Source: CBDFMG01 sp965221205 [NCBI: bacterium] (lineage in GTDB: Bacteria; SM23-31). From it: a stretch of 64,000 bases of DNA. The translations under genes were made by a program, and so were the position numbers. This document shows positions 427 through 60,110 of the stretch, piece by piece (position 1 is the stretch's first letter; the number at the start of each line of letters is the position of its first letter). The notes under the pieces are model-generated. The model saw only the letters and a program-made list of their open reading frames with translations. It had not been told where the DNA came from and did not search any database. The stretch lies in the NCBI GenBank assembly GCA_965221205.1, contig OZ244870.1, positions 558,001-622,000 of the forward strand. The letters run 5' to 3'.

Positions 427-1908
427 TCAATGAATCAGTAATATTTTCTCATTTGGTGGATGAAGAAATTCAACTCCCCGGTTTGTTAGAACATGATTGC
501 CCGATATACTGATGGATATCGGAAAACCGGGCCTCTCGGGAAGGTTTGTGTGTACCTGAAATTCATGTGAAAATAGATGATTCTCCTGGAACGTCAAATG
601 GTCCCGGTCTGAGCGGAACGGCGAAACTGAGGGACCGACAGACACACTTGTGCCCCCTGAAGTAGCGGTTCCGTTATTAATACCCTGGCTGTTAAGGTCA
701 AGGGAAAATCCTGATCTGTCCGTGTTAGCCAACGATTTCTGAATGAGTTTATAATCTTCCGTGCCAACATCGGTAAAGGGCGTATGGATGTAACCTGCTT
801 CTTCCATTGCTGATACGACAATCTCAAAAGTCTCACCACCTGTTCTGCCAACTTTTATGTTTTTACGAATTATCTCACGAGCTTCTAACCCTTTGTCAAA
901 GGCATATTGTATACTCCTGGGAACACTTGTTTCCCCTTCCCTCATAATATATGCATTGCGTTTGAAAACTGTCGCAAAGTAGTCCAGGTATTTAAGCCCA
1001 AGATCGTACGTAAAAAAATCACCTCGCTGTAAAACATAGTCATTGTGATGAATCCACCACCTGGCATCGGGCGGATCAATGGGTTCGGATTTTGCTGAAT
1101 AAAGAACCCGGGGGAGAAGTATACCATCACCACGATCTTTTCTTATTAAATTTTTTTCATAGAGACGCTGCTGAACCCACCATCCTACATCCCCCAGCGT
1201 TGTTACACCGGGCGTGATAACTTCACGAGAAAGAGCTCGTTCAAGGATCTGGCGGTGTATCTCTGCACCATTTGCAAAAGCAATTATTTCCCGTTGCACT
1301 CTTCTCACCCTGAAGTCGGTGATCACGGCCTCGGCAGACACTATCCGTGCCGAATACTTCTGCCCCAGGATCTTTTCCAGCTTTAGATATTGAGTATATG
1401 AGATTCCGTCTGCCACAGCGAGCCAATCGGATGAATTAATTGCGATCGTTTTCGGATCACGTTCAGCAATAAATTCTGTTATCTCGTTGTAGACTCCAGG
1501 ATCTTGTTTGCCGAAATCATAACCAGCAATTGCTCGTTCGACATCAAGAGAGCCGAAAATATCAAAAAAATCGGGATGCCCTCCACTTCCAAAAAGAGCC
1601 CTTTCGATCCTGTCCCCTCCTCTGTCTGTAAATATCAAATAACCTGATACCGATCCAAAATGCAAAGCCATCGGGTCGGAGAAACCAGCACGAATGACAT
1701 GGATCCACATATCCACATTATTGTCGCGCATGGCTCCCGGCAAAATAAGGTCAAGTTTTTCCTTTCTAATCAGATGAATGATTTCTTGTTGAGCTTTTGC
1801 ATTCAGACCTTTTTCCTGTGCACTAGATATAGATACTGCAAACACCATATATAATATTAAATGTAAACTCAAAAACACTCTTTTGGTAACGAAGTTTTCT
1901 TTAGACAT
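427..1908 (-). CDS. Secreted M24 (aminopeptidase P/creatinase-like) protein, metal site degraded
   Basis: 493 aa with a signal peptide (hydrophobic ~12-30, cleavage near SSAQ), a creatinase-N-like region carrying the local hallmark LPGAMRDNNVDMWI, and a C-terminal pita-bread domain (~200-493). M24 enzymes hold two metal ions with Asp, Asp, His, Glu, Glu. Here the first Asp (TYDLGLKY) and first Glu (HEFQVH) are kept, the second Asp is Val (ATVFKR), the His is Asn (DLNSQG) and the last Glu is Ser (SISGNHV). Two-metal catalysis is therefore unlikely; it may be a binding protein. A GGAGG ribosome site lies just upstream of the ATG. Closest local relatives are the genes at 18314 and 53955. The family assignment is firm; loss of activity is inferred. 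Confidence 0.85.
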   Translation of the reverse strand: MSKENFVTKRVFLSLHLILYMVFAVSISSAQEKGLNAKAQQEIIHLIRKEKLDLILPGAMRDNNVDMWIHVIRAGFSDPMALHFGSVSGYLIFTDRGGDRIERALFGSGGHPDFFDIFGSLDVERAIAGYDFGKQDPGVYNEITEFIAERDPKTIAINSSDWLAVADGISYTQYLKLEKILGQKYSARIVSAEAVITDFRVRRVQREIIAFANGAEIHRQILERALSREVITPGVTTLGDVGWWVQQRLYEKNLIRKDRGDGILLPRVLYSAKSEPIDPPDARWWIHHNDYVLQRGDFFTYDLGLKYLDYFATVFKRNAYIMREGETSVPRSIQYAFDKGLEAREIIRKNIKVGRTGGETFEIVVSAMEEAGYIHTPFTDVGTEDYKLIQKSLANTDRSGFSLDLNSQGINNGTATSGGTSVSVGPSVSPFRSDRDHLTFQENHLFSHEFQVHTNLPERPGFPISISISGNHVLTNRGVEFLHPPNEKILLIH

Positions 1909-2107
1909 AGTATACCTCCACTTGTTCTATGTAAAGAATTCGTGGTATTAAAAACGAGTTGGAATTTTTGTTTATATGAGGAAAAAATTAGCATAAATAT
2001 ATTAATAAAACAATATTATTTCAAAGTTACTACAAACTTCCTATTAAGAAGTTTGTAAACATTCACTATTTATTTGGAAATTTCCGTTCAATTCTAAATG
2101 TTTGAAT

Positions 2108-2143
2108 ATCGTTCTGTCCGTGGGTAGATAATACTTGTAAATG
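2108..2143 (+). repeat. Degenerate dispersed repeat, copy 2, in the 1909-2256 gap
   Basis: ATCGTTCTGTCCGTGGGTAG followed by ATAATACTTGTAAATG matches the right part and 3' extension of the type A repeat (compare 58494-58550, which ends TACTTGTAAATG). It lies ~110 bp before the broken DUF1080 gene. The rest of the 348-bp AT-rich gap shows no gene. Confidence 0.5.
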
Positions 2144-2256
2144 CAATACGTTTTCATTAGTTTTATCTCAATGAGTTCGAATTGTTATTATGATATACTT
2201 AGAACGCCTTGTTCATAACTCGTAATTCTAATGAACAAATTAGGAAATTTGCAATT

Positions 2257-3181: not shown

Positions 3182-3322
3182 CTTGGTGATAAATAGCCCT
3201 TTTCGGTTTATCGGGAAGATTATTCAATTTACAGTTGAACAGAGAGAATTAAGAGATAGCAATGACTTATTGTTCAATTTAATGAACTCGACACATCACA
3301 TCTATAGGCGAGGCCTTCAACC

Positions 3323-5452: not shown

Positions 5453-5777
5453 AAATAGAATCGGTGATCCTTACATACGTAAAATATTCCTTATCAGTGC
5501 GTTGTTCGTATCTTATCCGGGGATTAGAAATTAGAGATTGTATAAGTCAAGATAGAAATTTTAACATGAAGTGACGTGCGGTTATAAATATATTAGCGAG
5601 GATTGTAGTTCTCTTCATGTTGTTGATATTCTGTATATTCCATAGAAAAATTACTCTTGTCAATGAAATAAATGTTAATTAGTTTTAACTTAATTAGTCC
5701 AAAATGTTCCGGCGATACACAATGCATAGTAGTCCAACCCATTAATCTTTTTAACAAATTAAGAGTAGTGTTATAGT
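5453..5777 (+). other. Intergenic gap with a possible faint repeat copy
   Basis: AT-rich, no gene seen. Positions ~5504-5532 (GTTCGTATCTTATCCGGGGA then TTAGAAA) resemble a strongly decayed type A repeat, about 250 bp before the DUF1080 gene. The resemblance is weak. Confidence 0.3.
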
Positions 5778-6845: not shown

Positions 6846-6874
6846 TAATCCAACATCTACATTTGAGGGAAAGG

Positions 6875-10347: not shown

Positions 10348-11796
10348 GTGAATACCAAACAATTTTTACATACTATTACTATACCAATGTTAATTTTGAC
10401 ATTCAGTATTTCTTATGCTCAGGATTTTGGTATCGAATCTGTTGAGGACAGTAAAAATGTCTTACCCATCTGGCAGCAAGTTAAGGTAATGAACCGATTG
10501 TTAAAATTAAAACAGAAGACTGTCCTACCTGAAGTGATGAGGAGGGGAGGAATTGACATGTGGATCATCCGTAATAATGAAGAGGCTTTTTATTTTTCAT
10601 TATTGCAATCCAATGAAGAAGGGCTTGTTACAAACAGGCCTTCTTTCCTCATTTTTTATGACAGAGGTGACAAAGCTGGAATCGAGTGGCTAACGGGAAG
10701 ATTTGATGACCTTGCAGAAATAATTAGAGAACGAGACCCCCAAAAGATAGGAATAAATGTAATGAACGAATGGGCACAGTATAACTATGGATTTTCTGAA
10801 TCTGACAAAGCAGAACTGGAACACCGGATCGGCAGTAAATATGCATCTCGATTAGTCTCCGCTAAAATGGTAAGTATCTGGTGGCATGAAGCAAGGACTC
10901 CCGAAGAGCTCAGTGTTTTCAGACATGTAGCCGGGGTTGCCCATGATGTTATTGCTGAGGCTTTTTCAAATAAAGTAGTCATTCCCGATGTTACCACCAC
11001 CGATGAACTTAATTGGTGGATCAGGCAGAAATATATTGATATAGGAATAGACACTAATAATCATCCCACCATCACAATTCAAAGAAGCAAGAAAGAACGA
11101 ATTAAATATGATGATGATGACGAGTATTTTAGAATTCTGGATGAACGTTATAAAGTTATTCCCGCACCGATGAACGGACTGAACACGGTTATCAGGCGTG
11201 GAGACATTATATTTTGTGATACTGGAATCAAGTATCTTGGTCTCAATACAGATATCCAGCAAATGGCGTATGTTTTAAAGAAAGGTGAGACTGATGCTCC
11301 TCAAGGTCTCAAGGAAGCATTACGGCATGTAATTAGATTGCAGGACATTATTGGCGAAGAGATGAAACAGGGACGAACCGGGTATGAGATCGGCCGGACT
11401 GCTGCAGAAAGAGCACGGCAGGAGGGAATTCGGCCAAAGATCTATTGTCATCATCTGAGTTATTATTTCTTCCACTATGATCTTGTAGGAGGATTTTTGC
11501 CGCGCGATGTCTACTATGCCGGAATATTTATAAACTCTGAACCGAGAAGATCGGAGCGTCGTTTGACTGAAGGACCTCAATATGACTTGCGCCCATCATT
11601 TAGATTTCAAGTAGGCAGCAGCGACTATCCGCTTCAATATAATACCGTGTATGCGTTTGAAATGGATGTGCAATATGAGGTTCCGGAATGGGACAATCAA
11701 AATGTATTTATTTTTTCAGAAAATGTCATGGCGTTTACTCCCAGCGGAATGGTATATCCCGGTGGACGGCAAACTGAGTATTACCTAATTAAATAG
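10348..11796 (+). CDS. Secreted M24 metallopeptidase-like protein (subfamily B)
   Basis: 482 aa from GTG 10348, chosen because GGAGGA lies 7 bases upstream and the signal peptide (ends ISYAQ) then starts normally; the frame stays open 20 codons further up to a TTG. It has the N-terminal creatinase-like region with RRGGIDMWIIRNNEEA and a C-terminal M24 domain. Both metal Asp (FCDTGIKY, NTDIQQ), the first Glu (AFEMDV) and the last Glu (FSENVMAF) are seen; the His ligand is uncertain (YCHHLSYYF). It groups with the genes at 31222 and 58671 by the NDEE/NNEE motif. Probable role: exported Xaa-Pro-type peptidase. Confidence 0.87.
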   Translation: MNTKQFLHTITIPMLILTFSISYAQDFGIESVEDSKNVLPIWQQVKVMNRLLKLKQKTVLPEVMRRGGIDMWIIRNNEEAFYFSLLQSNEEGLVTNRPSFLIFYDRGDKAGIEWLTGRFDDLAEIIRERDPQKIGINVMNEWAQYNYGFSESDKAELEHRIGSKYASRLVSAKMVSIWWHEARTPEELSVFRHVAGVAHDVIAEAFSNKVVIPDVTTTDELNWWIRQKYIDIGIDTNNHPTITIQRSKKERIKYDDDDEYFRILDERYKVIPAPMNGLNTVIRRGDIIFCDTGIKYLGLNTDIQQMAYVLKKGETDAPQGLKEALRHVIRLQDIIGEEMKQGRTGYEIGRTAAERARQEGIRPKIYCHHLSYYFFHYDLVGGFLPRDVYYAGIFINSEPRRSERRLTEGPQYDLRPSFRFQVGSSDYPLQYNTVYAFEMDVQYEVPEWDNQNVFIFSENVMAFTPSGMVYPGGRQTEYYLIK

Positions 11797-11998: not shown

Positions 11999-12808
11999 AT
12001 GAAATTCATTGTACCCGTGTGGTTCATTATATTAGTCTTTCTACTTGTTGTTTGCAGTTCTGACAGCTCGGAAACCAATCCTTTTCCAAAATATATAGAC
12101 GTATTTGGTATTCACGTTATTGCAACTGCGGCTTCACCTGATGATAAATTGCTTCATGCAGCCAACGTGCTTGCAGAGTATCTGGATAATGACGAGGATG
12201 GTGTCCCGGACAACCAAAAAATCGTCGATGCGATGATTAAGGCGAATGCTACTCAGGTTGTAGCAAAGAACCAGGAGGATTTACGAGCAATTGACAGGAA
12301 ATTTTTCCCATCTCGCAACTGGCAAAATGTTTGGACCGACAATATTCGTCCAAATGGAGTTAACGGACTCTATAACGAGGCACTGGAAGAGGTTCTACAC
12401 TTGATAACTGACTACGGTTGGGGAGGTGCATATCCTTCAGTTTTTGGCAGAGTACCCGGGACAGAGATTGCAAAAGCATCGGAAGCAGCGAGGGGGGGAT
12501 ATTTTGATGAGGTTCCCGAGCAATATCCTGAAGGTGCCTGGCACACGTATTATGACGAAACGTGCGATTATGACTGTCAGATGTCTGAGTATATTCACTG
12601 GGGTTTAACATCGATACTTGGAGGGCAAGATTATCCCGGAACGTTCGAACGAGGAAAAGATCAATGGGATTTGAGAACGAGAGAACTAGTACAAACCGGT
12701 GATCCTGTTTTGTATGCGCTGCTCACCGATCCGCAATATAAGTTACCAACTGTCCTGCCTGACGGGAGTTACAGTGCTCAGATATTTGAGATTCAACCAT
12801 ATCCATAA
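11999..12808 (+). CDS. Secreted ExxxH-family protein (putative metallopeptidase-like)
   Basis: 269 aa. Hydrophobic N-terminus ending in VVCSSDS, compatible with a lipoprotein signal. Residues ~55-70 contain an acidic calcium-loop-like stretch (YLDNDEDGVPDN). The centre holds ALEEVLHLITDYG, where Glu-Glu-x-x-His sits where a zincin would have His-Glu-x-x-His; a downstream SEYIHWGLTSILGG may supply a further acidic ligand. Five window proteins share this pattern (11999, 51378, 52667, 60195, 61235), two with RTX-like tails as in serralysin-type proteases. I do not know a named family for it. Metal binding is an inference from pattern only. Its nearest relative is the broken gene at 61235. Confidence 0.7.
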   Translation: MKFIVPVWFIILVFLLVVCSSDSSETNPFPKYIDVFGIHVIATAASPDDKLLHAANVLAEYLDNDEDGVPDNQKIVDAMIKANATQVVAKNQEDLRAIDRKFFPSRNWQNVWTDNIRPNGVNGLYNEALEEVLHLITDYGWGGAYPSVFGRVPGTEIAKASEAARGGYFDEVPEQYPEGAWHTYYDETCDYDCQMSEYIHWGLTSILGGQDYPGTFERGKDQWDLRTRELVQTGDPVLYALLTDPQYKLPTVLPDGSYSAQIFEIQPYP

Positions 12809-25612: not shown

Positions 25613-25900
25613 ATGGCACGTAGAATTCACACATCAGAACAAATTATCCACAAGCTTCGAGAGGCAGAAGTACTGCTCGCTCAAGGTCAGTCGGTTCAAC
25701 AAGCTGCTCGCCAGATTGAGGTTACAGAGCAGACCTATTATCGTTGGCGAAAGGAGTATGGTGGTCTTCGGGTGAATCAGGCGAAACGATTGAAAGCGTT
25801 AGAGAGAGAGAATATTCGCCTGAAACGCCTGGTTGCCGAGAAAGAGTTGGATATTCAAATCCTCAATGAGACTCTGGCGGTTGATGCAAAAAACTTCTGA
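25613..25900 (+). CDS. IS3-family transposase OrfA
   Basis: 95 aa helix-turn-helix protein (SVQQAARQIEVTEQTYYRWR) with a leucine-zipper-like C-terminus (LKALERENIRLKRLVAEKEL). Ribosome site AAGGAGCAAG. Near its end the heptamer A-AAA-AAC (25888-25894) sits in the right frame for -1 slippage into orfB, which stays open from TGA 25882, giving the OrfAB fusion transposase. Confidence 0.93.
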   Translation: MARRIHTSEQIIHKLREAEVLLAQGQSVQQAARQIEVTEQTYYRWRKEYGGLRVNQAKRLKALERENIRLKRLVAEKELDIQILNETLAVDAKNF

Positions 25901-25920
25901 GCCCGGCGAAGCGACGGGAG

Positions 25921-29739: not shown

Positions 29740-29759
29740 CTCCCGTCGCTTCGCCGGGC

Positions 29760-42952: not shown

Positions 42953-42970
42953 CTCATTTCATTTATAACA

Positions 42971-44576: not shown

Positions 44577-45917
44577 ATGCGTAAATCACGGATTATTGTG
44601 TTGATTTTAACGTTCTTTCTGCTTGTCGAAGGACTCCCGGCTCAAAATCTCGAATCAGACAATATGCTAGACATGCTGAATCTGATCCGCAAAGAGAAGT
44701 TTGACAATATTCTGCCCCAGGCTATGCGGGATAACAATATCGACATGTGGATTCACGTAATGGGAACAAAAAATGGGGAAGAAGGAAATCTCGATCCACT
44801 CAGATTGGATTTTGGCAGCAATACCGGCACTTTTATTTTTACCGACCGAGGTGATGATAGGATCGAGCGGGCTGTTCTGGGCCGCATATCAGCCACTGTT
44901 CGCACCAGTAAAGCATACGATATTGTGGGACGGGCGGATGAGATTGCAAAGTTTGTTTCGGAACGTGATCCAAATCGTATAGCTGTAAATTTTTCTGAAT
45001 CGATTGCCGTTGCTGACGGCATATCGTACTCGGACTACCGAAAGTTGGTCAGTGATTTAGGCGACAAATATGCACAAAGAATCGTTTCGGCAGAGAACCT
45101 TATTACAGATTTTCGAACAAGAAGAGTGATGAGCGAAGTTGTCTACTTTGGAGAACTGTGTAAAGAAACTGTAGATGTGATTGAGAAGGCATTCGATATG
45201 GTCAAGCCCGGCGTCACTACCGTAGATGATATTGGCAGATGGCTTGTAAACCAGAACATGGTGAGAGGGTTTGACTCGATGTTCCAGTTTCTGATACCGG
45301 GTGTATTTGTCAGAGATGTTGACGGGCACGAAAATGATGCACGTGGAGGCGATCATTACGTTATCCAAAGAGGAGACGTGCTTCACATAGATTTCGGTAC
45401 GATACATATGAACTACCGTATAGATATTAAGCGGACAGCATACATTCTACGAGAGAGAGAAACGACCCTGCCGTCCGAAATTCAGAAAACGTTCGATGAA
45501 GCATTAGAAGTCCGGGAAATTTTTCGCAGAAATATCAAAGCAGGGCGTACCGGACAGGAAACGTTTGAAATCCTTAAGGCTGAGTTAGAGAAGTCGGGAT
45601 TTCATTACACATCGAGGGATCAATATGACACTAATGTCGATCCTGAAATAACCCAGATTAATTTAGGTTTCCACCCGCTGGGTAACAGTTGGCCGGTCGA
45701 TGGAGTCGGCCCGAGTATTGTCGAGAACTCAGAGAAAGCTCAATTGACGATTCCTCCCTATCATCTCTTCGTTTTTGAATATGGGGTGCACAGACCGATA
45801 GCGGAGTTGGGCAAAGAGAAACATATCTATATGGCAATGGAAGACGATGTGATTGTCACCGAACGTGGTGTCGAATTTCTCTATCCGCCGATGATGGGGA
45901 TACGGTTAATACACTGA
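44577..45917 (+). CDS. Secreted M24 metallopeptidase, all metal ligands present
   Basis: 446 aa, ATG with TGAGGTGAAATC upstream, signal ending GLPAQ. LPQAMRDNNIDMWIHVMG marks the local family. M24 ligands: Asp (HIDFGTIHM), Asp (RIDIKRTAY, normal spacing), His (GFHPLGN), Glu (VFEYGVH), Glu (AMEDDVIVTERG). With the 33649 gene it is the most conventional copy, a probable exported Xaa-Pro-type aminopeptidase. A weak repeat-like sequence (CTCATTCCGCTCGGAATTT) lies after the stop at ~45925-45960. Confidence 0.9.
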   Translation: MRKSRIIVLILTFFLLVEGLPAQNLESDNMLDMLNLIRKEKFDNILPQAMRDNNIDMWIHVMGTKNGEEGNLDPLRLDFGSNTGTFIFTDRGDDRIERAVLGRISATVRTSKAYDIVGRADEIAKFVSERDPNRIAVNFSESIAVADGISYSDYRKLVSDLGDKYAQRIVSAENLITDFRTRRVMSEVVYFGELCKETVDVIEKAFDMVKPGVTTVDDIGRWLVNQNMVRGFDSMFQFLIPGVFVRDVDGHENDARGGDHYVIQRGDVLHIDFGTIHMNYRIDIKRTAYILRERETTLPSEIQKTFDEALEVREIFRRNIKAGRTGQETFEILKAELEKSGFHYTSRDQYDTNVDPEITQINLGFHPLGNSWPVDGVGPSIVENSEKAQLTIPPYHLFVFEYGVHRPIAELGKEKHIYMAMEDDVIVTERGVEFLYPPMMGIRLIH

Positions 45918-48395: not shown

Positions 48396-49837
48396 CTATC
48401 GGGTCCAGTCAAGAATTATTTTTGCGGTTACTTTGATAGCTCTTATATAATCGGGCAAATCAATCCATTCGTCAGTAAGACCGTTCTGCGTTAAATTACC
48501 GCCAAGTGGTCCATACGCTACCGAAGGAATTCCACTGTACAGATAGGGATTATAGATCGAGCTTGCGGCATGCATAGGATTTGTAACAGGTTTTTCACCT
48601 GTGACGGCCTCTATAGCACTGCTAACCGTTTTATAGAGAGGGTGTTCTGCTGAAATATCCATTCCTTCACCACCAAACAGCCACAATAAAGAAGGAGGAT
48701 TTTCTTTCAGCCAAATGTCGGATTCAGAAACTCCGGCAATACTATTTTCCACCTCTTTCTTAACGTCGCTCATTTTTTCCGTAGGGGGAAAAGTGATTGA
48801 TGCTTCAACCATGCACTCTGTGGGGAAATTTCCTTTACTACTGATATTGTTGATCAGTATATTTGTTGATCTTCCTACTCTGTCATTAAAAATTTTATAT
48901 GAAACCCGCTCACCTCGTTCCGCATCCAGTTTTTTCAGTGCTTGGACAATAACAAAGGCTTTATCAATGGCATTAACGCCAAGATGTGCAAAAGCTGTTT
49001 TATCTGGAATTTTTGTGGATGGTTGCTTTCCTGAAATGGTGATTCTGAAACGGAGAATCCCCGGAGTGATATTTTGAATTTCTTTCATTCCAACACCGGT
49101 CTCTTCCGGATGAAGATAAATACAACCGTCTGCACGATAGCCTCGGTCTAAGAGTGCGATGATTCCCCTAGCATTCTGTTTTGTTGTCGCACTGCCGAGA
49201 ATGACATCACCACCTGGCTGCATACCGGCATCGCGGAGTGCATTGATCGCTTCTGTAAAGATGGCGATTCCTTCGAGATCATCCGCTACACCGTATCCGT
49301 AGAGTCGGTCACCTTCAATCACAGCGCCATAAGGATCGTGGGTCCAGTCATTGGTTTGTGGATTGGGTACGGGATCAGGGTGTCCATACATCAAAAGACT
49401 TTTTCCATTCCCGCTGCCGGAATAAGTCCCAACAACAGTAATACGTTCAATATCATGAATTGCTTCATCTGCGGCAAACTCATGTTCCATTTCAATTTGT
49501 GAAGGAAGCGCCCTGGGTACTTCTGTTGTGCAGCCGAGTTCTTCAAACCGCTTTGCGACAAGACCCTGAACGACTTCTTCTCCACCTTTCTGTGCTACGA
49601 TGAGCTCTTGTAAAAAAGCAATATACTCGTCTTTGTTATTGTCGATTTCATCAAACAAATATTGGTCCTCCTTATCTGTGTTATGCTGCAAAACATGCTT
49701 GTCACTCTCTGCCGCATATGATCTGCTATTCAAAAGAGATTATTCGTATGTGTGTTCCGGAGTGGTGTTGCTGGAAGTAACAAGAAAGGAGTGATGAGAA
49801 ACAGAGTAAGAACGTATTTAAAACATTTTTTTTGCAT
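48396..49837 (-). pseudogene. Secreted M20-like protein lacking catalytic Glu pair; frameshift after signal
   Basis: ATG 49837 with GGAGA upstream encodes a signal peptide (MQKKCFKYVLTLFLITPFLL) that runs out of frame near 49740; the mature part is open from 49733 (445 aa). One indel would join them. M20 motifs: metal His and Asp (MYGHPDPVP), bridging Asp (GVADDLEG), ligand Glu (HPEETG). But the catalytic Glu pair, normally DEE, is TKQ (SATTKQNARG), and the final His, normally in AHG.DE, is Asn (TQNGLTDEW). It therefore looks like a pseudoenzyme of the ArgE/DapE/carboxypeptidase fold, in line with the altered M24 and M28 proteins here. Confidence 0.78.
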
Positions 49838-51377: not shown

Positions 51378-52615
51378 GTGATGTTTCGAGTCATGATTTT
51401 TTTAGTATCTGTGATGTTTACAGTACCATTTGCCAATGCGCAGGTTGTTACGTTGCCCGATATCGACATCTCAGGTTCTCCCAATGGCATTGTTCTTTTA
51501 CCCGCGAACACGCCATCCATATTCACCGATTTATTTACGAGATACACCAATATAATCGCACCAAACGGCAAGCCCATTCATTTCCTTGCTCAAGATGACT
51601 GGTCGGACGATAAGATAATTAAAGCAAAGAAAGTCATGGAGTACTTTCTAACCGATTACCCCTACTCTCAATATGGCAGTAATAAAGAAGCAGTAGCAAA
51701 TGCTATGTCAGACAGAAAATCGACAATGACACTATATAACAACTCTGTTGAGGCTCGGGAAGCACGGGAAGGATTAAAAGGAGCAACTGACTTAGCTCTC
51801 CAAAGTATGTGGGCGAATGAAATAACCGTTGAAGGTAGTGACGATTACATGAACCAGGTAACCCGGGATGCCACATTCGAGGAAGTTCTCCATTTGGTGC
51901 AGCGCAGAGGCATCATGAACGCTCTGCCGGAATTTCAGGCTAAGATCGTAACAGCACATGAGGCTTATCTTGCTGCGGGGAAGTATGATCCCGGTGATGA
52001 TTCTCACAAATACAGTCCGAATGAATATTTTGCCGCACAACTTGACATATACCTCGATCTATGTGGGTAGTACCAGGAACAAGATGGGAAGGCAGAGACC
52101 AGACGCCCTCAGGAATGGAGAGACAAGCTTATGCATGGGGACTCCATATAGCAAACAGCCGCGCTCGGTTGCTGGAAGCCGACCCGGCTGTATATGAACT
52201 GCTGACACATTTCTTTCATCCGTACCTGACGTACACGCCGCTGCTGCCTTTAGATTTTGAGGGCACATTTTCGATTAAACTTGATCAGCGTCTGGTTTAT
52301 ACGTATAAATCTCAGCACCTTCAAAATGTGACACTGAGGGGCAGTAATGATGCAAACCTCACAGGAAATGCCTATAATAATGTATTAACAGGTAATGCTG
52401 GTAATAATATACTGCAAGGTGGTAAAGGAGATGATCAGCTCTTCGGAGATGCTGGGGATGACACAGCACTATACTGGGGTGCTTATGCGGATTATTCAAT
52501 AATAAATTACGATGGATATACAACTGTCAAGGATAAACGTGTAAACCAAGATGGAACCGATGAACTAACAAGTGTAGAATTTCTTCAATTTAATGATCGA
52601 AAAATAAAACTTTAA
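51378..52615 (+). pseudogene. Secreted ExxxH protein with RTX-like tail, frameshifted
   Basis: Start GTG 51378 or ATG 51381 (AGGAAAGGGG upstream), signal ending FANAQ. The first frame carries ATFEEVLHLVQRRG and NEYFAAQLDIYLDL, then stops at 52070. A TG duplication near 52060 explains it: removing two bases joins WVVPGTRWEGRDQTPSGMER in the second frame. That frame ends in RTX-like calcium-binding repeats (LTGNAGNNILQGGKGDDQLF, GDAGDDTAL) and a closing SVEFLQFNDRKI, as in serralysin-type secreted proteins. The intact paralogue is the next gene (52667). Confidence 0.75.
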
Positions 52616-52666: not shown

Positions 52667-53863
52667 ATGGTATCAAGACTAATTTTAATGACTTTTTCTT
52701 TATCATTGGTATTAATAAGCTTCAGTAACACATTTGCCCAAAATCCGCCGGTACTTCCTGATATAGACATTTCCAAATCAGAAACCGGAGTCGTGGATAT
52801 GCCGGATGATGTTGACAATGTTTTTAAAGTTTTCACCAAATATACTAAAGTGTTTGCTCCAAATGGAAAACCGATCCATATTGTAGTTCAACCAGGTATC
52901 TCTGATGATCAAATTGTCCATGCACGCAAAATACTTGTGAATCATCTGACGAACGTTCCGGGATCACTGTATGGCAGTGATAAAACTACTGTAGCAAATG
53001 CGCTGGCAGATAAAAATTCAATAATGGCGTTTTATATTAACCGAACTTCCATGGGAACCGATGCAAGAAGTTTTTTGGAATCAGGTATTAATACACAGGC
53101 TCAGCATACACCCCCGCCCATCCCTGAAGGTACTGAACTGTTCATGAGGGATGATCCGGTACGTGACGCTACCTATGAAGAGATCATGCATTATGTCGAT
53201 CGATTTGGTCTTAGGACAGCACATCCCACTTTTACTCGTGATTTGAATGACGCACACGACAACGCCAGGGCAAAAGGTCTATACAACCGGAACACAACTG
53301 GCGAATACTGGATCTGCGGGTTTGAAGCCTATTTTGATTTTTGGAGGCATGACCCGACCGGTACCGGGTCACGGGGGGAAGAATATATCCCCCTGGATAA
53401 CTTTAAGTTGCAAGCACTCGACCCAGCGATGTACGATCTTGTGGAAGGCTTTTTGGGTACGCATTGGATGTTTACCGCCAATATTGCGGAAGAATTTGAT
53501 GGTACGTTTTCGTTAACCCGCAGCGAAAATTCTACTTATACCAATAAAACTCAGTATATTAAAAAAGCGATGCTGACCGGTCGCAATGATTCAAATTTGA
53601 CGGGAAATGATGAAGACAACAATCTGTTCGGCAACAGTGGCGATAATGTTATTACACCAATGGCAGGTTCAGACGTTGTTGATGGCGGCCCTGGTAATGA
53701 TGTTGCCGTGTTTTCCAGTAATCGTGAGGATTTTATAGTGCATAAACAAGATGAAAGAGTGATCGTGGAAGGTATAAATTTCATGCGGGACGGTTATAAT
53801 ATTCTTATTAATATTGAAAAGCTTCAGTTTAATGACAGAGAAATATATGTCAGGGATTTATAG
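52667..53863 (+). CDS. Secreted ExxxH protein with RTX-like C-terminal tail
   Basis: 398 aa, signal ending NTFAQ. Residues ~40-300 are the ExxxH domain: VFTKYTKVFAPNGKPIHI, DATYEEIMHYVDRFGLRTAH with Glu and His four apart, and TGEYWICGFEAYFDFWRHD ~60 residues later with candidate acidic ligands. Residues ~300-398 hold nonapeptide-like repeats (LTGNDEDNNLFGNSGDN, GGPGNDVAVF) and the RTX-style end IEKLQFNDREIYV. An exported metalloprotease-like domain with a calcium-binding tail is the serralysin layout, but the first zinc His is Glu here. Activity is unproven and I know no named family. Confidence 0.75.
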   Translation: MVSRLILMTFSLSLVLISFSNTFAQNPPVLPDIDISKSETGVVDMPDDVDNVFKVFTKYTKVFAPNGKPIHIVVQPGISDDQIVHARKILVNHLTNVPGSLYGSDKTTVANALADKNSIMAFYINRTSMGTDARSFLESGINTQAQHTPPPIPEGTELFMRDDPVRDATYEEIMHYVDRFGLRTAHPTFTRDLNDAHDNARAKGLYNRNTTGEYWICGFEAYFDFWRHDPTGTGSRGEEYIPLDNFKLQALDPAMYDLVEGFLGTHWMFTANIAEEFDGTFSLTRSENSTYTNKTQYIKKAMLTGRNDSNLTGNDEDNNLFGNSGDNVITPMAGSDVVDGGPGNDVAVFSSNREDFIVHKQDERVIVEGINFMRDGYNILINIEKLQFNDREIYVRDL

Positions 53864-53954: not shown

Positions 53955-55364
53955 ATGAAATTTCGAGGCATGGTATTTTTAATTGCTATGTTATGCATAG
54001 TATCTATTGCCAATGCACAGCCTGGAGTACATACAGCCAAGACCGGCGGGGAAGTGCTTCGCTTGATTCGCAATGAAAAACTTGACCTGATTCTTCCGGG
54101 AGCAATGCGTGACAATAATGTGGATATGTGGATCCACGTCACCCGCACTGGAGACCCTGATCCACTGGCTGCGCATTTTGGGTCAACATCCGGTTATTTG
54201 ATTTTTACTGACGTGGGCGACAGAATTGAACGGGCCGTGTTTGGCAGAGGCGGTTCTGTTCAAAATATTGATATACGAGGCTCCCGCGACATCGCACGAG
54301 CTATTGCCGGTTATGATTATCGAACTCAAGATTTCTCAGTCTATGACGAATTGAGAGAATATGTTGAAGAGCGCGATCCGAAAACGATCGCCGTAAATTT
54401 TTCCGATTGGCTTGCTATAGCAGATGGCATATCCCATTCGCAATATGTAAAACTGGAAAAGATCTTAGGGCCGAAGTATTCAGAGAGAATCGTATCTGCG
54501 GAAAACGTCATCACCGATTTCAGGGCAAGAAGGATACTCAGGGAAGTTTCAGCTATGACCAATGCATTGGAAATACATCGTCAGATCCTTGAACGTTCTT
54601 TATCTAATGAAGTTATCACTCCGGGTGTAACCACTCGTGAAGATGTAGGCTGGTGGGTCCGTGAGGAGTTTTTTAAGCGGGGTCTAACTCGTGGATATAG
54701 TACTGGGGTAGGTACTCCTGCGGTTATCTATTCAGCAGTTTCCGACCAATCCGAGACAGGCTCTTCCCAGTATGTATTACAACGTGGAGATTTTCTGCAG
54801 TTTGATAACGGGGTTCGATATCTGAACTACTTTCAGACAGATTATAAACGAAATGCATACATAATGAGGGAAGGGGAAACAAGTGTTCCGAAGGGATTGC
54901 AGCACGCCTTTGATCGCTCCATGAATGCCCGCAGGATTATTCGGGAAAATGTAAAAGTCGGCAGAACTGCCGGAGAAACATTGGAGGCTATCGTCTCAGC
55001 CCTTGAAGATGCGGACTATATTTATACACCTTATACCGACAGTGGTCCAGAAGATCATATGATGATAATGAAGGTGTTGGCAAATACAAACAAAACAGGG
55101 ATTTCCATTGACCTTCATGTTGAGGGTAATAATAACGGCGGTCTTGAGACTGTCGGTCCATCCATTGCGCCTTTTCGGTCAGACCGGGATCATTTGATAA
55201 TTCCGGAGAATCATCTTTTTTCTTTTGAATTTATTACTAATACGAACATTCCTGAAAGACCTGGCTATCCACTTAGGATTAATATAGAAGGAAATCATGT
55301 TGTGTCCAGCCGGGGGGTTGAATTTCTTCATCCACCGAATGAAAAAATTTTACTGATCCACTGA
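53955..55364 (+). CDS. Secreted M24 metallopeptidase, metal site apparently complete
   Basis: 469 aa from ATG 53955 (GAGGAG upstream; signal ends SIANAQ; the longer frame adds 11 codons without purpose). PGVHTAKTGGEVLRLIRNEK then LPGAMRDNNVDMWIH. Ligands: Asp (QFDNGVRY), Asp (FQTDYKR, one residue later than usual), His (DLHVEGN), Glu (SFEFITN), Glu (NIEGNHV). Very close to the 18314 gene. First of four M24 genes in a row on the same strand, spaced 100-180 bp, so they may be transcribed together. Confidence 0.9.
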   Translation: MKFRGMVFLIAMLCIVSIANAQPGVHTAKTGGEVLRLIRNEKLDLILPGAMRDNNVDMWIHVTRTGDPDPLAAHFGSTSGYLIFTDVGDRIERAVFGRGGSVQNIDIRGSRDIARAIAGYDYRTQDFSVYDELREYVEERDPKTIAVNFSDWLAIADGISHSQYVKLEKILGPKYSERIVSAENVITDFRARRILREVSAMTNALEIHRQILERSLSNEVITPGVTTREDVGWWVREEFFKRGLTRGYSTGVGTPAVIYSAVSDQSETGSSQYVLQRGDFLQFDNGVRYLNYFQTDYKRNAYIMREGETSVPKGLQHAFDRSMNARRIIRENVKVGRTAGETLEAIVSALEDADYIYTPYTDSGPEDHMMIMKVLANTNKTGISIDLHVEGNNNGGLETVGPSIAPFRSDRDHLIIPENHLFSFEFITNTNIPERPGYPLRINIEGNHVVSSRGVEFLHPPNEKILLIH

Positions 55365-55540: not shown

Positions 55541-56950
55541 ATGGTATCAAAAATTATTATTGTACTCATATCATTGATGTTCGCAGTACCGGATGCTCTT
55601 GCACAGCAAGGCTCAAGTTTCATAGACCCATTGCCGGCGCGTACGGCTGAGACCGATATGGAAGCGCTTCGCCTGATGAGGAACGACAAACTTGACCTAG
55701 TTCTGCCGGGAGCCATGCGTGACAATAATGTAGACATGTGGATCCATGTAACTCGCGGTCACGACCCATTGGCTGTACAGCTTGGAAAGACATCCGGGTA
55801 TTTGATTTTCACCGATTTAGGAAATAAGATCGAGCGGGCTCATTTTGGAGGAAGTGCCGGCGCTATTGAAAATATTGATGTACGTGGTTCTGAAAATGTC
55901 GCTCGGGCATTTGCCGGTTATAATTATGACAATTCTGATCCGAGTCAGGGATATTCTGTTCCCGAAGTTTTCAACGAAATAACAGATTTTGTCGCTGAAC
56001 GCGATCCGCAGACGATTGCCGTTAATTATTCCGATTTTCTTCCTGTATCCGATGGTATTTCGTATACCCAATTTTTAAAACTGCAAAAAATATTGGGACC
56101 GAAATATTCTGCAAGAATTGTCTCGGCTGAAAGAGTTATATCAGATTTTCTGGTAAGAAGGACAAGTAGAGAGGTAGCGGCACAGGTTGAAATATTGGCG
56201 TTGGCACGTCAGCGTGCTGTAACAAATATAAGGAATATCGTACCGGGTAAAACAAGGGTACGGGATGTAGGAGCCAATGTCCTCTATTCAGCGGTTTCCA
56301 GTATGTCCGAGACACGCTCTCGTGACTACATATTGCAGCGAGGTGATTTATTTCATGGTGGCGGTGGAGGCGGTACCCTGGGCAAATATATGGACATGGA
56401 TGTTGATACAAAAACGTATGCTTATATATTGCGAGAAGGAGAAACAGAAGCTCCCAAATTTTTACAGGAAGTCTATGATCTGGCGATAGCAGGTCAAGAA
56501 ATTATGCGACCCCACATGAGAGTCGGTATGACCGGGGGAGAGTCATTGGCAGAGATGGTCAAAGCCATGGAAAATGCGGGTTATATCTATACACCATTTA
56601 CCGATAATGGTCAAAAAGACTATGAAATGGTTCGGAGAGTGCTTGCTAATACTGATAAACCGGGATTTTCTATCGATAATCACAGTATGATTAATAATCG
56701 CATCGAAACCGGGGAAGTTGAAGTTGACGTTAGAACAGAAGGTACGTCAATGGGGCCTTTTCGAACATTCACGCACCATTTAAAAATTCAGGAAAACCAT
56801 CTCTTTGCTTTTGAATATATGGTCCATAAGAATATTGATGAGCGGCCCGGCTATCCGTTAGCCTTTAACATTTCGAATCCTCAAATTATTACCAGTAAGG
56901 GAGTTGAAAATATTCAGGTGCCAAATGAGGGGATGATACTGATCAAATAA
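55541..56950 (+). CDS. Secreted M24-like protein with poly-Gly in place of the first metal strand
   Basis: 469 aa from ATG 55541 (ATGAGGAGAATGTA leader; signal ends DALAQ). LPGAMRDNNVDMWIHVTRG marks the family. In the M24 domain the strand for the first Asp reads FHGGGGGGTLGKYMDMDVD: the ligand is lost in a six-Gly run. The second Asp (VDTKTYAY), His (DNHSMIN) and first Glu (FEYMVH) are kept, the last Glu is Ser (NISNPQI). An intact frame with a broken metal site suggests a maintained non-catalytic function. Paralogue of the gene at 14782, which has seven Gly. Confidence 0.88.
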   Translation: MVSKIIIVLISLMFAVPDALAQQGSSFIDPLPARTAETDMEALRLMRNDKLDLVLPGAMRDNNVDMWIHVTRGHDPLAVQLGKTSGYLIFTDLGNKIERAHFGGSAGAIENIDVRGSENVARAFAGYNYDNSDPSQGYSVPEVFNEITDFVAERDPQTIAVNYSDFLPVSDGISYTQFLKLQKILGPKYSARIVSAERVISDFLVRRTSREVAAQVEILALARQRAVTNIRNIVPGKTRVRDVGANVLYSAVSSMSETRSRDYILQRGDLFHGGGGGGTLGKYMDMDVDTKTYAYILREGETEAPKFLQEVYDLAIAGQEIMRPHMRVGMTGGESLAEMVKAMENAGYIYTPFTDNGQKDYEMVRRVLANTDKPGFSIDNHSMINNRIETGEVEVDVRTEGTSMGPFRTFTHHLKIQENHLFAFEYMVHKNIDERPGYPLAFNISNPQIITSKGVENIQVPNEGMILIK

Positions 56951-57052: not shown

Positions 57053-58489
57053 ATGTTATATCGAGCTTTGATGTTACTCATTTCTGTGATGTTTTTAGTG
57101 TCTGTTGCCAATGCACAGCCGGGTGTTCATACAGCAAAGACAGGCGGAGAAGTGCTTCGTCTTTTACGAAACGAAAAGCTTGATCTTATTTTGCCGGGAG
57201 CCATGCGCGACAACAATGTGAACATGTGGATACACGTCGCTCGTGGTAGAGATCCACTGGTTCAGCAATTTGGATCAACCTCCGGTTATTTGATTTTTAC
57301 CGATCTGGGGGATAGGATTGAGCGGGCTGTGTTCGGTAGTTCAGGAGCCGTTGAAAATATTGACGTACACGGTTCAATCAACATTTCACGAGCTATTGCG
57401 GGTTATAATTATAACAATTCAGACCCTAGGCAGGGTTTTTCGGTTCCCGAAGTCTTCAATGAAATAACAGAATTTGTTGCCGAACGAGATCCGAAAACGA
57501 TTGCTGTAAATTATTCTGATTGGCTTTCCGCAGCAGATGGGATTTCCTATACCCAATATCTGCAATTGGAAAAGATATTAGGACCAAAATATTCTGAGAG
57601 GATTGTCTCAGCGGAGAATGTCATTACAGATTTTCTTTCAAGAAGGACTCTGAGGGAAGTAGCAGCAATGACCAATACTGTGGAAATGAATCGTCAGAAT
57701 TTTTCACGGGCTTTATCTCGTATCGAGCCGGGTGTTACAACGATAGGAGATATAACCTGGTGGGCGAATGAAGAGGCATTCAAGCGGGGTTTAGTAGATT
57801 ATAGCACATGGTCACCGGGGGGTCTTCGGGTTTACTATTCAGCAGTATCTGAACCTGTTGAACCACCAGACGTCAGATGGTGGATCCGTCACCCTGACTA
57901 TGTTCTTCAGCGTGGTGATTATTTTATTTTTAATACTGATCTTAAATATATGGGCTTTGGGACAGATAGTAAAGTTCATGCTTATATTTTGAGAGAAGGG
58001 GAAACCAGTGTTCCTGAGAGTTTTCAGAAAGTCTTTGATCTGGGGATACAAGCATTGGATATCTTGCGGCCACATATGAAAGTCGGCATGACCGCCGGGG
58101 AATCTTTGGATGCTATGGTCAAAGCCATGGAAGATGCAGGCTATGTATATACTCCATTTTTAGACAATGGCACTGAAGATTATAAGATAATACAGAAGGC
58201 GCTCGCTAATACTGATAAACCGGGATTTTCCATTGACAATCATTCTTTTGGTAATAATGGCGGTAACTTGAGAGTAGAAGGACCTTCAATGGCGCCCTTT
58301 CGGGTAAACACGCTTCATCTAAAAATTCCAGAGAATTTCATTTTTGCTTTTGAATATATGGTCCACATGAACATTCCTGAAAGGCCGGGTTTTCCACTTG
58401 CAATGAATTTTTCGAATCCTCAGATTGTAACCAGCCGGGGAGTTGAATGGCTTAGGGCACCTAATGAGAAAATTGTACTGATCCATTGA
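57053..58489 (+). CDS. Secreted M24-like protein, two metal ligands replaced
   Basis: 478 aa from ATG 57053 (AGGAGTAAGG upstream; an ATG at 57038 overlaps the ribosome site). Signal ends SVANAQ, then PGVHTAKTGGEVLRLLRNEK and LPGAMRDNNVNMWIH (Asn for the usual Asp of DMW). First metal Asp is Asn (IFNTDLKY), second Asp kept (GTDSKVHAY), His kept (DNHSFGN), Glu kept (FEYMVH), last Glu is Ser (NFSNPQI). It looks intermediate between the complete copies and the poly-Gly copies. Dispersed repeat 5 bp after the stop. Confidence 0.88.
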   Translation: MLYRALMLLISVMFLVSVANAQPGVHTAKTGGEVLRLLRNEKLDLILPGAMRDNNVNMWIHVARGRDPLVQQFGSTSGYLIFTDLGDRIERAVFGSSGAVENIDVHGSINISRAIAGYNYNNSDPRQGFSVPEVFNEITEFVAERDPKTIAVNYSDWLSAADGISYTQYLQLEKILGPKYSERIVSAENVITDFLSRRTLREVAAMTNTVEMNRQNFSRALSRIEPGVTTIGDITWWANEEAFKRGLVDYSTWSPGGLRVYYSAVSEPVEPPDVRWWIRHPDYVLQRGDYFIFNTDLKYMGFGTDSKVHAYILREGETSVPESFQKVFDLGIQALDILRPHMKVGMTAGESLDAMVKAMEDAGYVYTPFLDNGTEDYKIIQKALANTDKPGFSIDNHSFGNNGGNLRVEGPSMAPFRVNTLHLKIPENFIFAFEYMVHMNIPERPGFPLAMNFSNPQIVTSRGVEWLRAPNEKIVLIH

Positions 58490-58493
58490 GCAT

Positions 58494-58550
58494 AAAGATT
58501 CGCAAATTGTGCAGCCTGAGGTGGTGAAAATACTTGTAAATGTCAAGCAC
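58494..58550 (+). repeat. Dispersed repeat, copy 20 (type A, long)
   Basis: AAAGATTCGCAAATTGTGC, AGCCTGAGGTGGTGAAAA, TACTTGTAAATGTCAAGCAC. Best example of the 3' extension. It lies between the M24 genes at 57053 and 58671. Confidence 0.85.
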
Positions 58551-58670
58551 ATTTCTTATTATAGAACACGAAATATCCGAAATAAGGTGAAGTCGTACAA
58601 ATTAGTTGCAAATGTCAGTATTACTTCAGATTATTTACAAATAGTATCAATTATAAGAAAGGGAAGCGCT

Positions 58671-60110
58671 TTGAACACGAAACGATTTTTTTGGTCATTT
58701 TTTTTATTATTTATCCTGTTAACTGGTAGCATCACATTTGCACAGGTACCGAAAGCGGGTTCAGGCAGAGATACGGCGAATTTTATCCCGATGCGGGAAC
58801 GTGTCCAGATCATGCAAAAGTTCTGGGAGTGGAAAAGAGAGAACGTACTTCCGATGGTTATGCGGGAGCAGGGAATAGACATGTGGATCATCAGGAATGA
58901 TGAAGAGCCACTCTACCGTTCGACTTCTTATAGAGAGCATCCGGTATTTCTCTCCTTACTTCCGGCAAATCATGAGGGGATGGCTTATCCAAGTCAACAC
59001 AGAGGTTCCCGTTCCGGGATACCCGGATTTTTGCTTTTTTACGATACGGGAAACGAGATCGAATATGTTGAACCAAAAGATTTTGTTCATATTACGGAAT
59101 TAGTAAGAAAACGGGATCCCAAAAAGATCGCGGTCAGCATGAAAAACCTCGCTATTCGAAGACAGAAAATCGGTGAAACATCGCAATATAGTATTGTTAC
59201 GACTGATGAATTGACCAAAGCTTTGGGAAATAAATATGCTTCACGGAGTGTCGATTCATGGATTCTCGGTATTCGGTGGCTCTCGACGTTAAGCCCTGAG
59301 CAGATAAGTTTATACCGCTACGTTCAGGGAATGCATAATGATATTCTTGCCGAAGCTTTTTCCAATAAAGTTGTTACACCCGATGTTACGACAACAGACG
59401 ATATCAACTGGTGGCTGCGGCATAGATATTCAGATCTTCATTTAGACATAGACAACCACCCGTCCATCACTGTTACGAGGAGGCCATCAAAAATTTCTGA
59501 ATATGGTAATGATCCCGATAATTTCAGACGTGGCAAAACCGGAAACGGTGTGAATATGATTGTCAGGCGTGGAGATATCATCAATTGTGATTCGGACATT
59601 ATGCTTCTCGGTGTAGAAACCGATTCTCACCAGCACGCGTATGTGCTTCAGAAAGGCGAAGAAGATGTTCCGGAGGGTTTAAAAAGGGCACTGCGGATCG
59701 TTAATGATATTCAGGATGACTACAGAAAAGAATTCAAAATGGGTCGCACAGCGGAGGAGATACGCGAAGCCTCGGAGAGAATTCCGCGTAATCCTCTTAT
59801 AATAGACACATCAAATGGTTTTCATCCTCCGCCGATGTTCATCAGAAGGTTTACTCAGAATGGATTATTGTTTTCTCGTGGAACATACGTTACGGGAATG
59901 GGTTCAGGGTATAAACAGCATCCACTTCTATCTCCTGACCTCCCACTTCATTATAATACGATCTATGCGTTTGAGCCGCATACCAGTGTTAGAGTCGATG
60001 GATGGGGTGAATACGGCGTAGAAGTCGGAGTTGGACAACTTGCAATATTTACTGAAAATGGTTTAGAATATCTTGATAGACCAAATATCGAATGGCATGT
60101 AGTTAAATAA
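58671..60110 (+). CDS. Secreted M24-like protein (subfamily B), last Glu ligand missing
   Basis: 479 aa from TTG 58671, chosen because AAGGGAAG precedes it and the signal peptide (ends SITFAQ) begins there; the frame is open 54 codons upstream, through the repeat. REQGIDMWIIRNDEEPLYRS; Asp (NCDSDIMLLG), Asp (ETDSHQHAY), Glu (YAFEPHTS) present; last Glu position is Gly/Gln (VGVGQLAIFTENG). Near-identical in design to the minus-strand gene at 31222, so one was copied ~27 kb away, apparently with its upstream repeat. Confidence 0.88.
   Translation: MNTKRFFWSFFLLFILLTGSITFAQVPKAGSGRDTANFIPMRERVQIMQKFWEWKRENVLPMVMREQGIDMWIIRNDEEPLYRSTSYREHPVFLSLLPANHEGMAYPSQHRGSRSGIPGFLLFYDTGNEIEYVEPKDFVHITELVRKRDPKKIAVSMKNLAIRRQKIGETSQYSIVTTDELTKALGNKYASRSVDSWILGIRWLSTLSPEQISLYRYVQGMHNDILAEAFSNKVVTPDVTTTDDINWWLRHRYSDLHLDIDNHPSITVTRRPSKISEYGNDPDNFRRGKTGNGVNMIVRRGDIINCDSDIMLLGVETDSHQHAYVLQKGEEDVPEGLKRALRIVNDIQDDYRKEFKMGRTAEEIREASERIPRNPLIIDTSNGFHPPPMFIRRFTQNGLLFSRGTYVTGMGSGYKQHPLLSPDLPLHYNTIYAFEPHTSVRVDGWGEYGVEVGVGQLAIFTENGLEYLDRPNIEWHVVK

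What the first reader, a model, noticed from the sequence alone, without database searches (positions are those of the whole stretch)
427..60110. Eleven exported M24 paralogues with graded loss of the metal site
Seen: genes at 427, 10348, 14782, 18314, 31222, 33649, 44577, 53955, 55541, 57053 and 58671 share signal peptide, the DMWI motif and an M24 domain. Reading Asp/Asp/His/Glu/Glu by eye: 33649, 44577, 18314 and 53955 keep all five; 31222 and 58671 lack the last Glu; 57053 has Asn and Ser; 427 has Val, Asn and Ser; 55541 has Gly and Ser; 14782 has Gly, Lys and Ser. Known: M24 catalysis needs these residues. Inference: repeated duplication with turnover from enzymes to exported binding or regulatory proteins, perhaps a peptide-capture system or decoys.
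Basis: partly seen in the sequence, partly recalled or inferred. Interest (0 to 1): 0.85.

Follow-up and report, generated by a model that had tools for sequence, protein, structure and literature searches.

The report
Exported peptidase relatives with rebuilt sites
A bacterium carries eleven exported copies of a proline-peptidase-like protein, six of which have lost part of the metal site yet most of these still look kept by selection, and relatives in several phyla have rebuilt that site, so these genes probably do something other than cutting peptides.

Summary
Eleven exported M24-fold paralogues are present: five keep Asp/Asp/His/Glu/Glu, six do not (31222 and 58671 DDHEG; 57053 NDHES; 55541 GDHES; 427 DVNES; 14782 GDHK, then a frame change). 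A structure model confirms the M24B fold for 55541. The loss is not random fading. A tree of 76 relatives needs four changes between intact and altered: 427 alone; two clades shared by the window and other genomes; and one clade (49 proteins, none in this window) where the fifth ligand Glu became an invariant His, the ligand His stayed and Asp1/Asp2 became variable. Altered M24 copies are under purifying selection (dN/dS 0.05-0.33; omega = 1 rejected for the four window tips tested). They travel with an undescribed exported EExxH family, fused to His-Glu-His M24 proteins in 12 genomes. The window's M28 and M20 relatives also lack catalytic residues, but M28 genes beside His-Glu-His copies in three other genomes do not. 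Best reading: exported metallopeptidase folds turned to ligand binding or other chemistry; substrate, metal and activity are untested. Weak points: several broken frames in the window, no genome held, co-occurrence not corrected for kinship.

The parts
33649..34995 (+). exported M24-fold protein, DDHEE
44577..45917 (+). exported M24-fold protein, DDHEE; sister of the His-Glu-His clade
18314..19744 (+). exported M24-fold protein, DDHEE
53955..55364 (+). exported M24-fold protein, DDHEE
10348..11796 (+). exported M24-fold protein, DDHEE
31222..32673 (-). exported M24-fold protein, DDHEG (fifth ligand lost)
58671..60110 (+). exported M24-fold protein, DDHEG (fifth ligand lost)
57053..58489 (+). 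exported M24-fold protein, NDHES, SNPQ motif
55541..56950 (+). exported M24-fold protein, GDHES, SNPQ motif, Gly-rich stretch at ligand 1, helix deletion; AF2 pLDDT 83.2
14782..16197 (+). exported M24-fold protein, GDHK; frame change near the C-terminus
427..1908 (-). exported M24-fold protein, DVNES
11999..12808 (+). EExxH-family lipoprotein (lipobox by eye), next to M24 10348; homologue of the domain fused to His-Glu-His M24 proteins
51378..52615 (+). EExxH-family protein split over two overlapping ORFs (51378-52070, 52061-52615), RTX-like tail by eye
52667..53863 (+). EExxH-family protein with RTX repeat (PF00353), next to M24 53955
60195..61082 (+). EExxH-family lipoprotein (EHxxH form; lipobox by eye), next to M24 58671
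61235..61951 (+). EExxH-family lipoprotein; the match ends soon after the EExxH helix
13035..14642 (+). exported M28-fold protein with altered catalytic residues (HxQ, HD for HxD, EE)
16597..18204 (+). exported M28-fold protein with altered catalytic residues (HxQ, HD for HxD, EE)
48396..49733 (-). M20-fold protein lacking the EE pair and, by alignment to 3pfo, the last His; signal-peptide-like stretch upstream in another frame

Best explanation
An exported M24B (Xaa-Pro peptidase fold) family multiplied in this genome and in relatives and repeatedly gave up the two-metal site while most of the proteins stayed under selection. Shown: fold of one copy, ligand states, four changes on a tree, purifying selection, orthologous altered clades in other genomes, and association with an EExxH family. 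Inferred: the altered copies no longer cut peptides by the M24 two-metal mechanism. The SNPQ-type and 427-type copies most likely bind small peptides or amino-acid derivatives outside the cytoplasm. The His-Glu-His relatives most likely hold one metal at the old metal-1 position and use it for binding or for chemistry other than aminopeptidase hydrolysis. The DDHEE copies would be the remaining hydrolases. Likelihood that the altered copies are functional and not two-metal peptidases: about 0.8. Likelihood that the role is mainly binding rather than new catalysis: about 0.5.
For: Fold: AF2 model of 55541 (pLDDT 83.2, pTM 0.80) matches Xaa-Pro dipeptidases (VIA-align Z 22.1, rmsd 5.3, 343 aligned), and also creatinase 1chm (Z 20.5) and Spt16-N (Z 18.6). 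Selection: NG86 dN/dS for eight G008/G009 orthologue pairs is 0.135 and 0.110 for the two DDHEE pairs, and 0.150, 0.186, 0.138, 0.128, 0.113, 0.054 for the six altered pairs. Codon ML on six window paralogues: altered tips 0.20 (427), 0.23 (57053), 0.19 (55541), 0.33 (14782, part before the frame change), intact tips 0.24 (18314) and 0.15 (53955); omega = 1 is rejected for the altered tips by 2dlnL 78.7, 20.9, 57.1, 18.2. Pattern: of 191 proteins, 55 lost Asp1; the fifth ligand changed in 55 of 55, His kept in 55 of 55, Glu4 in 52 of 55, Asp2 in 18 of 55. His-Glu-His clade: His at positions 3 and 5 invariant in 49 of 49, Glu4 in 47 of 49; an Asp two residues before the His and an Arg are invariant there but mostly Gly and Ser in DDHEE proteins. 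Tree without ligand columns: four changes intact/altered; the His-Glu-His clade is one group (100/97) and joins 44577 (100/100). Links: EExxH domain fused to the M24 in 12 genomes.
Against: No activity, metal or ligand data. AF2 coordinates could not be inspected, so alternative ligands in space are not excluded. Several frames in the window are broken (14782, 51378/52061, 61235, 48396), which fits either decay or indel errors. dS between window paralogues is high (0.8-1.6 where it could be computed), so single-branch omegas are rough; omegas of about 1.2 on two inner branches of the SNPQ group and the bound value 20 on another should not be leaned on. The window itself holds no His-Glu-His copy. 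Even the DDHEE copies are not shown to be peptidases. M28 genes with intact catalytic residues lie beside His-Glu-His M24 genes in G094, G228 and G510, so altered neighbours are not a rule.
Confidence: 0.7

Rival explanations
1. The altered copies are new enzymes on the M24 fold (as creatinase, ectoine hydrolase and DMSP lyase are): the His-Glu-His group a one-metal enzyme, the SNPQ group a metal-free one.
For: Creatinase and ectoine hydrolase are among the closest folds. The His-Glu-His clade has its own invariant Asp, Arg and His residues, which looks like a rebuilt site. The window-type M28 proteins replace the EE pair by His-Asp or His-Glu in 7 of 7.
Against: No substrate or metal data. 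The Asp2 position varies widely (Ser 21, Asp 13, His 8 and others of 49), though its alignment is uncertain where the Asp1-Asp2 hairpin is shortened.
Confidence: 0.4
2. Decaying duplicates: the altered copies are pseudogenes on the way out.
For: 14782 has a frame change; two EExxH genes and the M20 gene also have broken or shortened frames.
Against: dN/dS well below 1 for the altered copies tested; the same altered states recur as orthologues in other genomes.
Confidence: 0.08
3. Decoys or inhibitors: exported inactive peptidases that occupy protease inhibitors or substrates of competitors or of a host.
For: All have signal-like starts; intact and altered copies lie side by side; a serpin-like gene lies at 62496-63509 (named by eye).
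Against: No target known; the invariant new residues of the His-Glu-His clade suggest a specific site rather than a mimic surface.
Confidence: 0.12
4. Metal-binding exported proteins that scavenge metal for TonB-type import.
For: TonB receptor and SSF transporter genes lie near M24 genes in G008/G009; His-containing rebuilt site in relatives.
Against: Peptide and amino-acid catabolic neighbours (amidohydrolase, DUF885) fit peptide use as well; the window's own altered copies lose rather than gain metal ligands.
Confidence: 0.12

Closest known systems
M24B Xaa-Pro aminopeptidase / prolidase (for example 2zsg, 4r60, 1pv9)
   Same: Two-domain M24B fold; DDHEE copies keep the five ligands
   Different: Exported, multi-copy; six window copies lack one or more ligand residues; in the alignment of 33649 with 1pv9 and 2zsg the His of their LPHG motif is not matched
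EBP1/PA2G4, M24 pseudopeptidase (PMC11266112, passages read)
   Same: M24 fold with ligands lost; the review's table gives EBP1 as D109, N120, H188, D227, K320
   Different: Eukaryotic, MetAP-type, ribosome-associated; no tandem exported family and no His-Glu-His set
Spt16 N-terminal domain (3biq, 5e5b)
   Same: Same fold as 55541 at Z 18.5-18.6; a non-enzyme (recalled)
   Different: Eukaryotic FACT subunit
Creatinase (1chm) and ectoine hydrolase EutD (6twk)
   Same: M24 fold used for other chemistry; close matches
   Different: No His-Glu-His set known to me (recalled); not exported multi-copy families (recalled)
DddP DMSP lyase (PMC4108388, passages read)
   Same: M24 fold turned from peptidase to lyase
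   Different: Keeps the two-metal site (Asp295, Asp297, Asp307, His371, Glu406, Glu421)

Membership tests
Peptidase M24 (PF00557) / M24B fold | Pfam profile match above the curated cut-off | tested here: met
   9 of 11 window proteins; 55541 and 14782 had no match at E 0.01
Peptidase M24 (PF00557) / M24B fold | pita-bread catalytic domain plus N-terminal domain | tested here: met
   tested on 55541 only of the window: Z 22.1 to Xaa-Pro dipeptidase over model residues 23-467; a fusion relative: Foldseek 1.8e-10 to 3q6d
M24 two-metal peptidase (active) | five ligands Asp, Asp, His, Glu, Glu | tested here: not met
   met by 5 of 11 window copies only; the other 6 lack one or more
M24 two-metal peptidase (active) | Xaa-Pro hydrolysis and two bound metals | not testable with these tools
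   needs purified protein
Pseudopeptidase (non-catalytic, conserved homologue) | catalytic or metal residues lost but protein under selection | tested here: met
Pseudopeptidase (non-catalytic, conserved homologue) | no catalytic activity | not testable with these tools
   a new activity is not excluded
Mononuclear His-Glu-His metal enzyme (works-like idea for relatives) | two His and one carboxylate conserved at one site | tested here: inconclusive
   by sequence H 49/49, E 47/49, H 49/49; geometry not inspected; no such copy in the window
HExxH zincin (idea for the EExxH family) | HExxH zinc motif | tested here: not met
   EExxH in 48, EHxxH in 13, HExxH in 1 of 64; 2 of 64 incomplete there; no relevant Pfam or PDB sequence match
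Active M28 peptidase | HxD and EE catalytic residues | tested here: not met
   both window copies read HxQ and HD; 13035 aligned to 3iib
Active M20 peptidase/deacylase | EE pair and last His | tested here: not met
   48396 aligned to 3pfo: EE replaced by KQ, last His not matched. The G510 orthologue has KR there and a His two places further on, so the last His is uncertain in that one

The most novel reading that the evidence does not exclude
These islands encode a previously undescribed extracytoplasmic system built from several unrelated metallopeptidase-type families (M24, a new EExxH family, and in the window also M28 and M20), each recoded at its catalytic or metal site and working on one class of substrate. 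In its core the M24 fold has been converted from a dinuclear hydrolase to a one-metal His-Glu-His site, physically fused to the EExxH domain. (Odds lowered from 0.30 to 0.25 on checking, because M28 genes with intact catalytic residues lie beside His-Glu-His copies in three other genomes.)
Probability: 0.25. Interest if true: 0.92.

Novelty: new variant of a known kind. Interest (0 to 1): 0.7.

Why it matters
Pseudopeptidases are mostly described one at a time and in eukaryotes (my impression); the one M24 case in the passages that I read of a 2024 review is EBP1 (PMC11266112). Here one bacterial genome segment holds intact and altered paralogues side by side, altered states recur as conserved clades in other genomes, and in relatives the site was rebuilt (Glu to invariant His). 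That gives a natural series for testing how a metallopeptidase fold changes function, points to an uncharacterised exported gene set in uncultured bacteria, and warns against annotating such copies as Xaa-Pro peptidases. Searches for earlier reports: 0 papers; some searches found 66, 2, 37 and 421 papers, of which 12, 2, 10 and 6 were listed, and no listed title or abstract start describes this. The library lacks most subscription journals.

Tried and rejected
Tandem repeats, tRNAs and Rfam families in the window gave nothing that bears on the finding. NCBIfam, given 7 of the 11 M24 copies, returned only matches below the curated cut-offs, for two of them. A sequence profile of the His-Glu-His proteins finds only one PDB chain at E 1 or better, E 0.0034; the EExxH profile finds no credible PDB match, and no fold match for that domain could be read because M24-fold structures filled the 50 rows shown for the fusion, so its fold stays open. 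The idea that 31222, 58671 and a G008 protein have Tyr for His came from a misalignment and was rejected by a subfamily alignment. The idea that an archaeon hosts the window, from hits in Bathyarchaeota and Heimdallarchaeota bins (L070, L078), was dropped: those proteins are DDHEE and not the nearest relatives. The window's organism was not identified: 33649 is closest to MAGs of Holophagales and other lineages (71-75%), the M28 gene to G196 (69%), G126 and G081, and a DUF5916 protein gave no clear answer. Catabolism of collagen or hydroxyproline was considered from the amidohydrolase, DUF885 and DHDPS neighbours and left as speculation. The sponge origin of several MAGs rests on record names and recall; the one sponge paper opened (PMC8163846, passages) did not show the MAG names.
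Full report
Observation. The eleven ORFs are real and align along their length; tblastn of the eleven finds no twelfth copy in the window at E 1e-3. Nine of eleven pass the Pfam M24 cut-off. All begin with a signal-peptide-like segment ending A-Q (by eye).

Fold. A model of 55541 built on 20 family members has pLDDT 83.2 and pTM 0.80. Its best matches are Xaa-Pro aminopeptidases and dipeptidases (Foldseek E 3.3e-13; VIA-align Z 22.1, rmsd 5.3, 343 residues), with creatinase, ectoine hydrolase, DddP and Spt16 further down the same list. Both domains are covered, so a copy that Pfam misses is still a complete M24B protein. A lower-confidence model of a fusion relative (pLDDT 72.7) also matches Xaa-Pro dipeptidases (E 1.8e-10). 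The other ten window copies were not modelled.

Relatives. In 71 of 79 loci one member was found, in 8 two to five; several of the 8 have altered copies next to an intact one. Whole-genome searches gave 12 matches each in G008 and G009 (some genes matched in two pieces, so about ten and nine open frames), while 20 of the 22 genomes of their family have none at E 0.001. In 396 Acidobacteriota genomes 73 match the His-Glu-His profile at E 1e-30; 17 score above 470 bits and were confirmed as His-Glu-His by reading the ligands (at most 4 candidates per genome were scored, so this is a lower bound). In 249 Gemmatimonadota genomes 65 match at 1e-60 and 2 are of the His-Glu-His class (at most 7 candidates scored per genome).

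Ligand states. Of 191 distinct proteins, 131 are DDHEE, 49 have His in place of the fifth ligand, and 11 are others, including one cut off at a contig or frame end (three rows relabelled DDHEG). Asp1 is lost in 55; in all 55 the fifth ligand is changed (14782 is counted as read, in its shifted frame) and the His kept, Glu4 is kept in 52, Asp2 in 18. In the 49-protein clade His3 and His5 are invariant and Glu4 is kept in 47; the two exceptions (FHHAH, FHHSH in G008 and G009) carry His at position 2, as do six others of the 49. That clade also has an invariant Asp two residues before the His and an invariant Arg, positions that are mostly Gly and Ser in DDHEE proteins. In canonical M24 enzymes Asp1 belongs to metal site 2 and the other residues to site 1 or to both (recalled), so the pattern fits a change from two metals to one. 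No coordinates were inspected.

Tree. The tree used 76 of the 191 rows: 30 of 131 DDHEE and 46 of 60 others, near-duplicates dropped. With the ligand columns and two neighbours on each side removed, the careful tree needs four changes between intact and altered (a parsimony count that cannot itself tell gain from loss). The His-Glu-His clade is one group (bootstrap/SH-aLRT 100/97) next to window 44577 (100/100). The SNPQ clade (57053, 55541, 14782, an orthologue in Acidobacteriota G081, and orthologues in G008 and G009; 100/99) sits with 18314 and 53955 (98/100). 427 is a separate change. The DDHEG pair has a relative in G008 with the same change (100/100). The window itself has no His-Glu-His copy.

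Selection. For eight G008/G009 orthologue pairs NG86 dN/dS is 0.135 and 0.110 for the two DDHEE pairs and 0.054 to 0.186 for the six altered pairs; three LDHEH pairs among Acidobacteriota give 0.113 to 0.192. For six window paralogues a codon model gives 0.24 overall; tips of altered copies are 0.20, 0.23, 0.19 and 0.33, all rejecting omega = 1, and the two intact tips are 0.24 and 0.15. The two DDHEG copies give 0.17 between them. Two inner branches of the SNPQ group show omega about 1.2 (2dlnL 13.6 and 7.4 against one omega), which hints at a burst of change when the site was lost; dS is high and another inner branch ran to the bound, so this is only a hint.

The EExxH family. Proteins at 11999, 51378/52061, 52667, 60195 and 61235 form a family without a relevant Pfam match (ten members). 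Its core motif is EExxH in 48, EHxxH in 13 and HExxH in 1 of 64 sequences, with a later Glu in 98% of rows. In 12 Acidobacteriota genomes it is the N-terminal part of one open frame (738-788 codons from stop to stop) whose C-terminal part is a His-Glu-His M24 domain (one read in full). It is found in 18 of 396 Acidobacteriota genomes; 15 of these 18 are among the 17 with His-Glu-His M24, 3 are not (G038, G081, G106), and 2 His-Glu-His genomes (G117, G094) lack it (Fisher p 2e-22, not corrected for kinship: 12 of the 15 carry the same fusion, and several of the profile rows come from these genomes). G008, G009, G510 and G607 have both; in 7 further genomes in which I saw no His-Glu-His copy (not every copy was read) it is absent.

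Other altered peptidases. Of 16 M28 relatives in the window and fetched loci, the seven closest to the window's (window 13035 and 16597, three in G081, one each in G196 and G126) read HxQ or HxE for HxD and HD or HE for EE; the other nine keep both (13035 aligned to 3iib). In G081 contig C18 three altered ones lie among M24 and EExxH genes. Against a general rule, three of the nine intact ones lie on loci with a His-Glu-His M24 gene (L185 of G228, L192 of G094, L213 of G510). The M20 protein at 48396 lacks the EE pair and, against 3pfo, the last His; an orthologue with 50% identity, a signal-like start (by eye) and KR in place of EE lies about 4 kb from a His-Glu-His M24 gene in Gemmatimonadota G510, but it has a His two places from the canonical last His, so that loss is uncertain there. 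Only 2 of 14 genomes searched match this M20 at E 1e-20, and the one in G038 (30%) was not inspected. The M28 pair of the window has dN/dS 0.38.

Interpretation. 'Graded' is replaced by discrete conserved states. Whether the altered proteins bind, capture or convert is open; I favour binding or altered chemistry on peptide-like ligands because of neighbours such as M28, DUF885, amidohydrolase, TonB receptors and SSF transporters, which is inference.

Against this reading. Several frames are broken in the window. The five-ligand copies are not shown to be peptidases: in the alignment of 33649 to 1pv9 and 2zsg the His of their LPHG motif has no counterpart. The co-occurrence is dominated by one lineage. 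The sponge habitat is inferred from record names.

On re-reading the calls I lowered interest from 0.72 to 0.70 and the novel-case odds from 0.30 to 0.25, because the M28 and M20 alterations are less general than I had first written.

Noticed in passing
window 25885-26775 (+) and 28885-29775 (-): Two related transposase-like ORFs (IS3 type by eye) in opposite orientation flank a DUF1080 fragment and a TPR gene; further DUF1080 copies or pieces lie at 2555-2866, 5769-6713 and 27369-27626.
   Followed up: no
window 62496-63509: Serpin-like gene just after the M24/EExxH cluster (named by eye).
   Followed up: no
window 48396-49733 and upstream: The M20 ORF lacks a signal peptide in its frame; a signal-peptide-like stretch lies upstream in another frame.
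   Followed up: partly
L144:7870-10089 and 11 further genomes: Lipoprotein-like fusion of the EExxH domain with a His-Glu-His M24 domain, with one to three more EExxH genes beside it in the eight such loci fetched with flanks (L142-L146, L197, L198, L219).
   Followed up: yes
L010:12999-14213, L009:19843-21060: M24 relatives reading FHHAH and FHHSH: Glu4 lost, His at the Asp2 position, which would leave three His at the site.
   Followed up: partly
L195:14934-15836: Only one of 64 EExxH-family sequences with a full HEFVH motif, suggesting the family came from HExxH proteins.
   Followed up: partly
L213:7048-10252 and L192:7686-11619: M28 genes with intact HxD and EE lie next to His-Glu-His M24 genes in G510 and G094.
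   Followed up: partly
G008, G009 (L008, L009, L010): MAGs labelled Gammaproteobacteria carry the M24 islands while 20 of 22 genomes of their family have no match, which suggests horizontal spread.
   Followed up: partly
L070, L078: Bins labelled Bathyarchaeota and Heimdallarchaeota contain DDHEE members close to the window's family; binning error or transfer.
   Followed up: no
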